In this document: positions 29,617-43,357 of the stretch, piece after piece | Numbering within the stretch: position 1 is the first letter of the stretch | Layout of the letters: the number at the start of each line of letters is the position of its first letter | Origin: Chaenocephalus aceratus | Lineage: Eukaryota; Chordata; Actinopteri; Perciformes; Channichthyidae | Reading direction: 5' to 3' | Assembly: GCA_023974075.1 (NCBI GenBank) | Contig: CM043801.1 | Span: 496,001 to 560,000, forward strand | DNA length: 64,000 nt | Program-made: the position numbers and the translations under genes | Notes under the pieces: model-generated | What the model was told of the DNA's origin: nothing | The model's input: only the letters and a program-made list of their open reading frames with translations | Database searches by the model: none

Positions 29617-30088
29617 GACTCGACAGATATGTTAGGTTTAGTTATGTTTTTACTCTAGTTTTGTGTTTTGATCTTGTCACTTCCTGTTTTTATTTTGAAA
29701 GTAATCTTTCCTGTCATTCCAGATCCCACAGTTCCTGCCTTTGTGTGTTTCCCGCCCGTGAGATTGCTTGGCCCTGCCCTGATAGTTTTCACCTGTGCCC
29801 ATCCCCCTCACCTATAAATAGCCCTGGTGTTTCTTTGTTCCTTTGTCAGTTCGTTATGTTGCATGTCGTGAGCACCCAGGCCTTTTGACTCCTGATACGT
29901 ACCTTGTGATTTAGACCTTTTGCCAAGTGAGTTTTTGTGTTGCTGTACATCTTTGTTTTGGCTTTTTAACTACTTTCTATTTTTGGAAAGTACGATTTAG
30001 TTTTTGTGATTAAAGATCATTCTATTTTTGGACAACTGTCTCCGAATCCTGCTTTTGGGTCCTGCGTCCTGTGTCTCGGTTCATAACA
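29617..30088 (+). repeat. 5' LTR of the Sushi-like element
   Basis: 472 bp. Contains TATAAATA at 29813-29820 and an ATTAAA near 30010, and ends GGTTCATAACA. It has 30 bp (around 29895) absent from the 3' LTR. Confidence 0.92.
29813..29854 (+). promoter_or_regulatory. LTR promoter: TATA box and predicted RNA start / self-primer
   Basis: TATAAATA at 29813-29820. 32 bases after its first T lies GTCAGTTCGT (29845-29854), exactly complementary to 30091-30100. A transcript starting here would carry a 5' end able to pair with the primer-binding site, as in Tf1. The start site is inferred from spacing. Confidence 0.6.
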
Positions 30089-30090
30089 GT

Positions 30091-30100
30091 ACGAACTGAC
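30091..30100 (+). other. Putative self-primer binding site
   Basis: ACGAACTGAC, two bases after the 5' LTR. No TGG-start tRNA-type binding site is present. Perfect 10-base complement of the predicted RNA 5' end at 29845-29854. Confidence 0.6.
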
Positions 30101-30129
30101 CAAAATATGGACCCAGCGGATTCATAACA

Positions 30130-31200
30130 GTGAAGATAGCTCTGCGAGCTCAAGGAACGAGACTACAGCAGCATGAGGAGCAGCTGGGCGCCATCAACCT
30201 GGGGGTGAGGGACCTGACCGGCCGTCAGGAAAACTTTCAAGCCTCAGTCAATACTCAGGTGAATCACCTTGCCGAACAGCTGCACCGTGTCCTCGCTCAC
30301 CTGGAAGCTGGTTCATCCCCTCAGCACCCTGCTGTTGCTCACACACCTATTGTTCCAGCTGACCATGTGCCACTCCATGCTCCACCGCCTCGTCTGGCAT
30401 CTCCAGAGCGATTCTCCGGAGATTCCGGTGACTGCCGCCCTTTCATTGTTCATTGTGATCTCCATTATAAATATAACCCTGCTGCATTCCCCACTGATCA
30501 CTCCAAAGTGGCCTTCATGGTGAGCCACTTAACGGGGAGAGCAGCGGCCTGGGCTACGTCCGAATGGGCGAGAGATTCATCTACCTGTAATTCTCTGGAT
30601 GTATTTACAGACACTCTCACCAAGGTGTTTAATCGCACGGCTCCTGGAAGGGAGGCAGCCAGAGCACTGATGCAGATTAAGCAGAGTCAGCGCAGAGTAT
30701 CGGACTATGCCATTGAGTTCAGGACCCTTGCAGCAGATAGTGGCTGGAATTCTGCAGCACTGCTCGACGCCTTTTTGTCTGGTCTTTCGGATTCCATTAA
30801 AGACCAGTTAATACCTTTAGACCTCTCAGAAGACTTGGATTCTGTCATTGCACTGGCAGTTAGAATAGACAATAGACTGGCCGAAAGACAAAAAGAAAGG
30901 TTCAAGAGTGTGGCACGTCTGCCTCGACACCAAGGGGACACACCAAGCCATCGTCCCGCCTGGAGACCTCCTACCGATACTCCTCCTGAGAGAAGAGTGC
31001 TCCCTAGTGTCTCAGAGGAGCCCATGCAGTTGGGTCGGGCAAAGTTGACTCCGGAGGAAGGTCTTCGGCGCATTCAGGAGGGCAGGTGTTTTTACTGTGG
31101 GGAGCAGGGGCACCTCCTGGCTTCATGTACAGCAAAAGATCAGGCTCATCAGGGACGAGGAGGACCCTGGTGTCATCTGGATTCCCTCCTCGTACCTTGA
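30130..31200 (+). pseudogene. Sushi-like gag, start codon region damaged
   Basis: An open frame of about 356 codons. The N-terminal part is coiled-coil-like (LRAQGTRLQQHEEQLGAI), then a capsid region (SPERFSGDSGDCRPFIVHC, WATSEWAR, YAIEFRTLA), then one CCHC knuckle CFYCGEQGHLLASC near residue 320. The expected ATG at 30107 begins MDPADS but meets a TAA after six codons and lies in another frame. A 10-base TTCATAACAG at 30080-30089 recurs at 30121-30130, suggesting a small rearrangement destroyed the start. The frame overlaps pol by about 115 bases, with pol in the -1 frame. I saw no canonical slippery heptamer. Confidence 0.8.
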
Positions 31201-41012: not shown

Positions 41013-42910
41013 AAAGGATCCAAAGCTGACAAGGTTTTTGGAAACATGCACTCCCCTAAACTGTTGAAAAGGGTTACAAACCAGGATTGATTACCCTCAC
41101 TCAAGCTATCTATGATTATGTACATATAATTATAATATTCAGCAGAACTATTCATACACCAGTGAAATCAAAAAGAAGATCAGCCTAGATCTACAACAGA
41201 CACCAAAGCAGGGGAGCTAGAGTCCAAAGGTCGGCCATGTCGTCACCAGAGTTCTGAGCGTTCTTCCACACTGACCAAGGAGGATACCAGATAAAGCACA
41301 CTACTCTGGGACTGTGAGTGTGTGTGTGTGTGTAGCTCAGGGGGGGGATGTCAGCTGTTGATAAGCGTTGTCCATCTTGGCCTTATTTAGACAAGCACTA
41401 CTTCTGACGCACATAAAGGCCTACACGCACGCACGCACGCACACAGCCAAGAATGTGCCTACTTGCTTCTCTCCCTCCAGCCCACACAGCTACTCTTTCT
41501 CTCTCTCTGTATTATCACTGTGTTCCCACAATCTCTTCCTGCCTAAATAAATTAATATTAATGTTTATTCGTTTGAAAATGTCAATAACAATTTTGACAA
41601 AGCATCAAAATAACAATGGTCCAAATAATCGGACAGCACCGAATAAAAGTGATACAAACATTAACATGACAAAAAGACAATATTCAGTTTATCCTTTTTT
41701 TGAAAAATAAATGTTCTTTAAGGAATTGCATCTGTGTTGAACGGTAACCCCATATTCAGCTTTCTGCTGGCTGCCAGGACCGTACTTAGTTAGGATGTGT
41801 CTCTGCTTTCTATCCCTGACAGAGAGACTACCAATTCATTCATTCTATTTTTAGGGCTGGATGACATTGTAATCTACTCTTGCTTTAGGATTCTTCTTGC
41901 TAATGATCTCAATAGTTTCCCCTACATTGCGTTATTGTTAGTTTTACTCTGATTGGCGTTAGAACAGCAGTGTTGTGAGGCTGCTTATAGTGTGTCTGAG
42001 AGGGAGCAGCATAGAGGACTCTGTTCTGGGCTCAGCTCTGGACTGTGGAGGGTTGATTTTCAGGTGGGCTCTCTTGTGAATGTAATTATCAATGGGTATC
42101 TATGTAATACTGCTCTAAATGCATTTGTTGGTATAACATACATACATCTGTCTATGATAATTCTCTTTATATATCCAGGGTCGGGTTGGGGGGACAGCAG
42201 GCTAACAAGGTAATTCCAGATTGTCCTCTACCCAGTAATATTTTCCATCTCTTCCCGGGTAACCCCAAAGTGATACTTAGCCAGACAAGATATATCATCT
42301 GTCCAGTGTGTTCTGGGTCTAACCCGGGGCCTCTTACCAGTTGGGCGTGCCCAGAACATCTCTAAAAGGATATGCACAGGAGGAATCAATGGCCGCTAGC
42401 TGAGATAAGCCTACGTAGGAACCTTATTTTGGCTTCTTGTATTCATAATCTCAATGTAAAGATCCCTCTTTCAGGATGGAAACTCCTGCAAAATATGTTG
42501 TGTATACAGAATTAACAACCTAATAACATTACAACATAGACAGTCCATTTGATTCAAATATAATTAAATATATATAAAAATATTGTTCTAGGGAGGATGT
42601 TAAACAATTTCCATTCCCCGCCACCAGATGTATTTTGAAAATATTTTCTTTAAATCAAGGGAAATCTACTGGAGCATTTAAATATATTCCAATTAGTTAT
42701 GCCCTGGGTTTAATCAAATGTGTGGTTTACCTTTTAATGCTGCTGAGTTGTGATTGCAATGATCTCCTTTATACTCAACTTCAGTTTTCCATTAGGAAAA
42801 GTGTGGATAGAACCTTCTCTAAAACACCAACTCAGCTGCAGAACCAAGCTAGCTGTGTCAATGCAAAACACTGATTGCTCAAAGAGACACTGCTCCTGGG
42901 CATTATAGGA
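41013..42910. other. jph1 intron, no gene seen
   Basis: Unique-looking sequence with a short TG tract (41315-41332) and a CACG tract (41426-41442). Confidence 0.4.
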
Positions 42911-42915
42911 CATCC

Positions 42916-43345
42916 TGTCAGGGTTTGAGTTTTGTTGTGTCTAGTTGTGGGGTTATTTTTGCTTTTCTGTTCTCCCTGTCATGTTTTCCTCCTTGTTTCT
43001 TGTCTGGTCCTTCTCCCTGTGTTTTCCTCCCTGTCATGTATACTTTTCTGATTGTGTTCACCTGTTGCCCTTGTGTTTCTCCTTCCCTGCCCGGCTGTTT
43101 CTCGTCTCGTGATAACCCCTCCCTGTATTTAGTCTTGTCTCTTCCTGTGTTCGGTGTCGGTTCATTGTTTGTTTTTCCCGTCACTCTCCATGTCAATCAT
43201 CGTCAGCTTTTTGTATTATATCTTCCTTCTGCATCCTTTGTGTTTTTGCCATTAGCTTTTACAATAAAGCTCGTTTTTGTTTTCTAGACCAACTTACCTT
43301 TTTTTGTAGTCTGCTTTTGGGTCCTACCTTTCCCAAACCGTAACA
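42916..43345 (+). repeat. 5' LTR of the non-autonomous element
   Basis: 430 bp with ACAATAAAGC poly(A) motif near 43262. Confidence 0.88.
43125..43166 (+). promoter_or_regulatory. LTR TATA-like box and predicted RNA start / self-primer
   Basis: TATTTA at 43125-43130 and, 31 bases after its first T, GTCGGTTCATT (43156-43166), exactly complementary to 43347-43357. Confidence 0.55.
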
Positions 43346-43346
43346 G

Positions 43347-43357
43347 AATGAACCGAC
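43347..43357 (+). other. Putative self-primer binding site
   Basis: AATGAACCGAC, one base after the 5' LTR. Perfect 11-base complement of 43156-43166. The ORF start ATG (43348-43350) lies inside it. Confidence 0.55.

What the first reader, a model, noticed from the sequence alone, without database searches (positions are those of the whole stretch)
29813..43357. Co-varying self-primer pairs in two LTR retrotransposons
In the Sushi-like element, GTCAGTTCGT (29845-29854) lies 32 bases after the first T of TATAAATA and is perfectly complementary to ACGAACTGAC (30091-30100), two bases after the 5' LTR. In the non-autonomous element, GTCGGTTCATT (43156-43166) lies 31 bases after a TATTTA box and is perfectly complementary to AATGAACCGAC (43347-43357), one base after its 5' LTR. 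Between the families the pairing segments differ at two positions, and both differences are compensated on the other strand. Tf1, and by relationship Sushi-type elements, prime reverse transcription with the 5' end of their own RNA. Seen: pairing, spacing, covariation. Inferred: use as primer.
Basis: partly seen in the sequence, partly recalled or inferred. Interest (0 to 1): 0.75.

Follow-up and report, generated by a model that had tools for sequence, protein, structure and literature searches.

The report
Self-priming fish LTR retrotransposon families
Two related jumping genes in what is probably a fish genome each carry a matched pair of short sequences that would let their RNA fold back and prime its own copying into DNA, a known trick of their group, and one genomic copy looks like a fossil of that fold-back happening in DNA.

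Summary
Element A (29618-34956) has GTCAGTTCGT at 29845 and ACGAACTGAC at 30091; element B (42916-45852) has GTCGGTTCATT at 43156 and AATGAACCGAC at 43347. A carries Tf2-type SH3 and chromo domains; B is non-autonomous. Matches of 10 nt or more between an LTR and the bases just after it are rare by chance (87 and 143 of 20,000 shuffles). The likely mechanism is Tf1-type self-priming, already described for vertebrate sushi elements. New support: (1) one further duplex of the Tf1 "pretzel" RNA, U5 with the gag start, is present in A and B; (2) a third family, C, has a perfect 12-nt pair 31 nt after TATAAA that differs from A at 4 of 10 positions; (3) 30 of 37 A copies keep the pair, and the 7 departures lie at CpG positions. 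"Covariation" between A and B is entailed by two perfect pairs; no compensatory change was seen within a family. The most interesting extra is one B-group locus where the LTR runs through its primer-binding site straight into its own inverted U3, as if cDNA had snapped back on its primer sequence and been integrated. It is a single locus; the genome-wide count could not be run.

The parts
29618..30088 (+). Element A, 5' LTR (the first ~7 nt of the LTR as seen in the 3' LTR appear missing)
   Evidence: repeat with 34516-34956; ends in AACA
29813..29820 (+). TATAAATA box of A, 32 nt before the primer
   Evidence: sequence
29845..29854 (+). A self-primer segment GTCAGTTCGT, inferred RNA 5' end
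   Evidence: exact complement of 30091-30100
30044..30062 (+). A U5 strand of the second duplex (GAATCC-T-GC-TTT-TGGGTCC; T and TTT unpaired)
   Evidence: 15 Watson-Crick pairs with 30109-30123
30091..30100 (+). A primer-binding site ACGAACTGAC
30107..30123 (+). A gag start codon and leader strand of the second duplex (ATG GAC CCA GCG GAT TC)
   Evidence: in this copy the frame stops after MDPADS
30130..34516 (+). A gag-pol region in pieces: gag 30130-31200; weak protease, RT, RNase H, IN zinc domain 31086-33401; SH3_Tf2-1 and Chromo 33740-34516; reading frames broken
34493..34505 (+). A polypurine tract AGAGGGGGGGGGG, followed by TAA
34509..34956 (+). A 3' LTR (30-nt gap relative to the 5' LTR; primer copy at 34743-34752)
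42911..42915 (+). B target-site duplication CATCC (with 45853-45857)
42916..43345 (+). Element B, 5' LTR (TGTCAGGG...AACA)
43126..43131 (+). TATTTA box of B, 30 nt before the primer
43156..43166 (+). B self-primer segment GTCGGTTCATT, inferred RNA 5' end
   Evidence: exact complement of 43347-43357
43308..43324 (+). B U5 strand of the second duplex (AGTCTGC-TTT-TGGGTCC; TTT unpaired)
   Evidence: 14 pairs, one of them G-U, with 43365-43378
43347..43357 (+). B primer-binding site AATGAACCGAC
43363..43379 (+). B leader strand of the second duplex, remnant of a gag start with TTG in place of ATG (TTG GAC TCA GCA GAC TC)
   Evidence: relatives start ATGGACCCAG or encode MDSADS
43382..44983 (+). 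B open frame of 533 codons; N-terminal part related to predicted proteins of notothenioid fishes and to the N-terminus of one gag protein (P0008); tandem repeats follow; no Pfam match
45413..45852 (+). B 3' LTR (primer copy at 45662-45672); preceded by GAGGGGGGGGTTA

Best explanation
Both are Tf1/sushi-group LTR retrotransposons that prime minus-strand DNA synthesis with the first 10-11 nt of their own RNA. The TATA box sets the RNA 5' end at the G of GTCAGTTCGT or GTCGGTTCATT (inferred). This end pairs with the site just after the 5' LTR (shown as sequence). A second duplex joins U5 to the codons at the gag start just after that site (shown as sequence and by folding); it crosses the first, so together they would make part of the Tf1 'pretzel'. 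RNase H then nicks after about nt 10-11 and reverse transcriptase extends into U5 (inferred from Tf1). In B no polymerase domain was found; it is presumably moved by proteins of a gag-bearing relative with the same LTR group and the same primer-binding site (inferred).
For: Pairing exact and unique in the window; rare in shuffles (87 and 143 of 20,000). Element A: gag, RT, RNase H, IN zinc, SH3_Tf2-1 and Chromo. The pairing begins 32, 30 and 31 nt after a TATA-like box in A, B and C. Second duplex: 4 of 2000 (A), 0 of 2000 (B) and 1 of 2000 (C) shuffles as strong. Third family C (L244, G000:C17:14440236-14440769): GCCAGATAATTC / GAATTATCTGGC, 12 nt, with ATGGACCCCGCAGAG downstream; 2 of 20,000 shuffles reach 12 nt. 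C differs from A at 4 of the 10 pair positions, all compensated. A/B identity is 44 of 54 in the four pairing strands and 116 of 225 elsewhere. Of 37 A copies with both segments 30 are perfect; non-CpG primer and PBS positions differ in 0 of 10,656 copy comparisons, other non-CpG LTR positions in 4231 of 155,370. Of 93 distinct LTR ends, 28 of 42 with a gag-start-like sequence downstream have a self-complement of 10 nt or more; of 51 without, 1 does, and that one is the inverted locus of the novel case.
Against: No RNA 5' end or cDNA was measured. 14 of the 42 gag-start-type ends lack a 10-nt match: 8 A-type ends carry a change at a CpG position of primer or PBS and L177 one in its PBS; L164, L181, L231 and L167 lack the promoter and primer part of the LTR; L219 has a deletion in the primer. 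The third pretzel duplex, LTR end with sequence after the primer, is no stronger than shuffles (854 and 537 of 2000). In nested folds of longer leaders the primer duplex gives way to the second duplex, since the program cannot hold both. With CpG positions counted, the 10-nt windows at primer and PBS rank only 110th and 72nd of 309 for conservation. The 40 A copies were the best scored of 256 candidates, found with a query that contains both segments, so conservation is overstated, and they are also part of the 93 ends. Family C rests on one copy.
Confidence: 0.9

Rival explanations
1. Chance complementarity, made to look meaningful because the two LTRs are homologous.
For: A and B are related, so they count as less than two independent cases; covariation at two positions is implied by two perfect pairs.
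Against: Shuffle frequencies, position after TATA, a third family with 4 of 10 pairs changed, and 1 of 51 control ends.
Confidence: 0.01
2. Priming by a host tRNA; the self-match has another use or none.
For: No fish tRNA set was at hand to test it; ARAGORN, with the bacterial code, finds no tRNA in the window. Some plant elements use half tRNAs (passage of PMC6317226).
Against: A site for a tRNA 3' CCA end starts with TGG (recalled); the first TGG lies 19 nt (A, 30108) and 18 nt (B, 43364) after the LTR end, too far to give a clean LTR end (sequence).
Confidence: 0.03
3. The pairing is an RNA structure for translation control or packaging rather than a primer.
For: The second duplex covers the gag start codon of A; [quoted passage not shown]
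Against: Pairing starts at the TATA-predicted RNA end and stops 1-2 nt from the LTR, as a primer must; no TGG-initial site is in its place. Structure and priming may both hold.
Confidence: 0.05
4. For the inverted B-group locus (L262): not a reverse-transcription product but a later genomic rearrangement joining two B LTRs head to head at an 11-nt identity.
For: One locus only; the flank repeats AACAC/GACAC match at 4 of 5; the forward arm is as near to the window's 3' LTR (10 of 212) as to the inverted arm (10 of 210); assembly error not excluded.
Against: The inverted arm runs to the first base of the LTR, so both outer ends are U3 ends, with a near-perfect 5-bp flank repeat. The inverted arm's nearest relative, apart from its counterpart on contig C485, is the forward arm; the arms share three states seen in at most 1 other LTR, and at all 10 places where they differ at least one arm has a state seen in at most 2 other LTRs. 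A second contig shares the inverted arm and right flank.
Confidence: 0.35

Closest known systems
Tf1 of Schizosaccharomyces pombe (self-primed reverse transcription)
   Same: First 11 nt of the RNA complementary to the PBS, RNase H cut after nt 11 (passage of PMC7175516); further duplexes between PBS-adjacent sequence and the 5' LTR (passages of PMC10085805); chromodomain integrase.
   Different: Probably a vertebrate host; here 10 nt in A, 11 in B, 12 in C; cleavage and priming not measured; one of the three duplexes has no statistical support.
Vertebrate Tf1/sushi group elements such as sushi-ichi (Butler et al. 2001; paper not held, known through citing passages)
   Same: SH3/chromo integrase; self-primer described for the group.
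   Different: Their sequences could not be compared here; B lacks a recognisable gag-pol and carries tandem repeats.
Tcn1-clade chromoviruses of mosses and club mosses (passages of PMC6317226)
   Same: Self-primer predicted by a complement of at least 10 bp to a stretch 0-5 bp after the LTR, the criterion also used.
   Different: Plant hosts.
TRIM-type non-autonomous LTR elements (passages of PMC6934838)
   Same: B: LTRs, primer-binding site, polypurine tract, no polymerase found.
   Different: TRIMs are described with a tRNA site and under 1 kb; B is 2.9 kb with a self-primer and a long open frame with tandem repeats.

Membership tests
Tf1/sushi group (element A) | Ty3/gypsy gag-pol with chromodomain at the integrase C-terminus | tested here: met
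   RVT_1, RT_RNaseH, Integrase_H2C2, SH3_Tf2-1, Chromo
Tf1/sushi group (element A) | RT-IN phylogeny inside the group | not tested
   no tree was built; only domain matches and gag homologues, the named ones mostly fishes
Tf1/sushi group (elements A and B) | RNA 5' segment complementary to a site just after the 5' LTR | tested here: met
   (complementarity and TATA distance; the RNA end itself not mapped)
Tf1/sushi group (elements A and B) | Pretzel duplex between the 5' LTR and sequence 3' of the PBS | tested here: met
Tf1/sushi group (elements A and B) | Pretzel duplex between the LTR and sequence 5' of the PBS | tested here: inconclusive
   854 and 537 of 2000 shuffles as strong; short TGTT:AACA pairing appears in nested folds
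Tf1/sushi group (elements A and B) | RNA starts at the primer and is cleaved after nt 10-11 | not testable with these tools
   needs RNA
tRNA-primed LTR elements | TGG-initial PBS within a few nt of the LTR (recalled) | tested here: not met
   first TGG 19 and 18 nt after the LTR
Non-autonomous LTR retrotransposon (element B) | Two LTRs, target-site duplication, PBS, polypurine tract, no polymerase | tested here: met
   CATCC/CATCC, GAGGGGGGGGTTA; 3 B frames without Pfam match

The most novel reading that the evidence does not exclude
Self-priming elements carry a built-in hazard: in their cDNA the plus strand ends in the primer-binding site, which is complementary to the start of R on the same strand. 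One B-group locus (L262, G000:C1060) has the structure U3-R-U5-G-PBS followed at once by inverted U3 down to the LTR's first base, with AACAC/GACAC flanks. It reads as a plus-strand strong-stop DNA that snapped back on its own primer sequence, was extended, and was integrated through two U3 ends. If so it is a genomic fossil showing that the site is really copied from the self-primer and pairs with it in the cell, and a new class of LTR insertion to look for.
Probability: 0.55. Interest if true: 0.7.

Novelty: new member of a known kind. Interest (0 to 1): 0.5.

Why it matters
In the passages I could read, self-priming in vertebrate retrotransposons rests on sequence inference. Three families in one genome with different yet perfect primer pairs at the same place, plus a second duplex that also encodes the start of Gag, make the inference stronger and show a non-autonomous element keeping the signal. 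If the inverted locus is a snap-back product, similar fossils could be counted in any genome with such elements and would give physical evidence for self-priming without an experiment.

Tried and rejected
Copies outside the genome: one 14-nt LTR motif in viral contigs gave 120 loci (capped list), none of which I judged to be an LTR with such a site; the fuller motif gave 0 in viral and 0 in genome contigs; the RT piece gave no confirmed relative in either. Rfam found nothing in 28000-47000 at gathering scores. NCBIfam found nothing for 5 pieces. A pattern meant to find families with other primers gave 8 hits: 6 A-type copies with a CpG change, C again, and 1 unrelated; its backwards control gave 3.

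Compensatory change within families: looked for and not found in 37 A copies and 14 B-group copies. The B-group variants GTCAGTTCATT and AATGAACTGAC would pair with each other but were not seen in one copy; both look like CpG decay of the usual pair. The idea that a short TGTT:AACA duplex is a real third duplex was dropped after shuffles. A fold that seemed to contradict the primer pairing was traced to the competing, crossing second duplex. Not used: an R-U5 identity of C to A and B from a gap-prone alignment, and the primer row of L200, which is an alignment artefact (L200 holds only GGTTCATT).
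Full report
What is there. Two LTR retrotransposons lie on the + strand of the window, which is contig 17 of a 1.06-Gb assembly; that it is a fish is inferred from protein hits. A (29618-34956) has LTRs of 471 and 448 nt; over 441 aligned positions they differ at 5, with a 30-nt gap. Its pieces match Retrotrans_gag, Ty3_capsid, RVT_1, RT_RNaseH, Integrase_H2C2, SH3_Tf2-1 and Chromo, with a weak protease match; frames are broken, and the frame from the gag ATG at 30107 stops after MDPADS. 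B (42916-45852) has LTRs that differ at 12 of 423 aligned positions with 22 gap columns, exact CATCC flank repeats and no Pfam match in the three frames tested. Both have a GAGGGGGGGG tract before the 3' LTR.

The pair. The segments occur nowhere else in the window apart from the primer copies in the 3' LTRs. In 20,000 shuffles per element a match of 10 nt or more was seen 87 (A) and 143 (B) times. The two A/B differences are compensated, but that is the same fact as two perfect pairs. Taking A as given, B's two changes landing on matching places with matching bases is a matter of about 1 in 100 to 1 in 400 (my arithmetic, no call).

A second duplex. U5 of A (30044-30062) can pair with the 15 nt at the gag start (30109-30123), all Watson-Crick with a T and a TTT bulge; B does the same over 14 pairs with one G-U and the same TTT bulge. 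The duplex energies were reached by 4 of 2000 (A) and 0 of 2000 (B) shuffles. This duplex crosses the primer duplex. PMC10085805 (passages) describes for Tf1 a central primer:PBS duplex and two more between PBS-adjacent sequence and the LTR, called the pretzel. The other flanking duplex is not above shuffles here (854 of 2000 and 537 of 2000). Nested folding shows the first or the second duplex depending on how much leader is given. With the strands of the other blocked, the second has mean pair probability 0.93 or more in all 13 leaders long enough (8 A, 6 B were run beyond 30110 and 43365; all 14 of these show it), and the first 0.81 or more in 14 of 16 leaders, the exceptions being A to 30220 (0.00) and B to 43560 (0.50). 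The leader strand encodes the Gag start: 26 of the 120 related Gag proteins listed begin MDxAD (143 were found). In B the ATG is TTG, yet the pairing is kept.

Other copies. Of 40 A copies fetched (best of 256 candidates, window copy included), 37 hold both segments: 30 perfect, 4 with one G-U, 3 with one mismatch. All 7 changes are at CpG positions; non-CpG positions of the pair differ in 0 of 10,656 comparisons, against 2.7% at other non-CpG LTR positions. With CpG included, primer and site are not among the most conserved windows (110th and 72nd of 309). Of 40 B-type places fetched, 14 apart from the inverted locus keep a recognisable site: 8 pair perfectly, 1 has a G-U, 2 have one mismatch, 3 (L219 and L220 look like one insertion) have a deletion in the primer. 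No copy shows a compensatory change, so covariation is seen only between families. B-group copies L164 and L219 and L210 and L224 carry ATGGACCCAG and then GATGATCCATTTGAGG after the site, that is MDPADDPFE, the gag-like start of P0007; in L210, L219 and L224 the site is identical to B's. This is a likely partner for B. P0008 joins a B-like N-terminus to a sushi-type gag.

A third family. L244, found with a motif that holds only the U5 block, LTR end and one G (127 places; backwards control 0), has GAATTATCTGGC after the LTR and, 203 nt before the LTR end and 31 nt after TATAAA, GCCAGATAATTC. Two of 20,000 shuffles reach 12 nt; its U5:gag-start duplex is -39.2 kcal/mol, reached by 1 of 2000 shuffles. 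Against A, 4 of 10 pair positions differ, all compensated. It is a single copy without a second LTR in the 3.6 kb read. As a control, 93 distinct LTR ends from loci L121-L258 (16 loci gave no usable end) were classed by what follows the LTR without looking at the pair: 28 of 42 with a gag-start-like sequence have a match of 10 nt or more, 1 of 51 without. The 42 include A copies found with a query that held the pair.

The odd one. That one control hit, L194, is a B-group LTR whose site (AATGAACCGAC) runs without a break into the reverse complement of the sequence just upstream of the primer. Fetching more shows a forward LTR from L262:940, split by an 801-nt insertion at 1153-1953, the LTR end at 2184-2187, the site at 2189-2199, and an inverted copy of LTR positions 250 to 1 ending at 2451. 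Flanks are AACAC and GACAC. A second contig, C485, shares the inverted arm and right flank (98.9% over 2011 nt), but its forward LTR lacks about 45 nt including the first bases of the primer and its insertion differs; its left end was not fetched. The arms differ at 10 of 210 (7 of 203 in a stricter alignment). Of 17 other B LTRs with enough overlap (3 of 18 fetched were dropped, the two window LTRs added), none is nearer to the inverted arm than the forward arm is; for the forward arm the window 3' LTR is about as near (10 of 212) as the inverted arm. The arms share 5 minority states, 3 of them seen in at most 1 other LTR. The structure is what one expects if plus-strand strong-stop DNA, whose 3' end is the site copied from the RNA primer, anneals to the R start of the same strand and is extended to the 5' end of U3. 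Integrase would then see two U3 ends. This is inference from one locus. Two paper searches for related ideas (listings only) showed no title on such insertions, which is a narrow search.

Standing. Self-priming of Tf1/sushi elements, vertebrate ones included, is stated in PMC6317226 and PMC10085805 (passages). Two searches combining self-priming with non-autonomous elements returned one and the same paper, on bivalve TRIMs without a clear site (passages); a third on fish elements listed 12 of 62 papers that I did not open for this. So A is ordinary for its group, B is a non-autonomous member with its own self-primer, and the inverted locus is the part worth following.

Noticed in passing
L262 (G000:C1060:27700-30300), 940-2451; also L263 (G000:C485): B-group LTR continuing through the primer-binding site into its own inverted U3, with AACAC/GACAC flanks; possible snap-back cDNA insertion.
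   Followed up: partly
L262:1153-1953: An 801-nt insertion with TAGTGCTG...CAGCACTA ends flanked by GTGATTAC on both sides, inside the forward LTR, as of a hAT-like DNA transposon (type recalled).
   Followed up: no
window 43382-44983: B frame: N-terminal part shared with predicted proteins of Dissostichus, Champsocephalus and Pseudochaenichthys; tandem repeats of 33, 12, 60 and 45 nt in the element; in P0008 a similar N-terminus precedes a sushi gag.
   Followed up: partly
window 30080-30090 and 30121-30131: TTCATAACAGT of the A LTR end recurs inside the gag start of this copy, where the reading frame breaks.
   Followed up: no
P0060: A gag protein labelled Escherichia coli (1504-nt contig) is 50% identical to the A gag; probably contamination of a bacterial assembly.
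   Followed up: no
window 13028-13628 and 16836-17511: Direct repeat of ~600 nt at 74% identity 3.8 kb apart, perhaps an old LTR pair.
   Followed up: no
window 24868-25656: Block of short tandem repeats.
   Followed up: no
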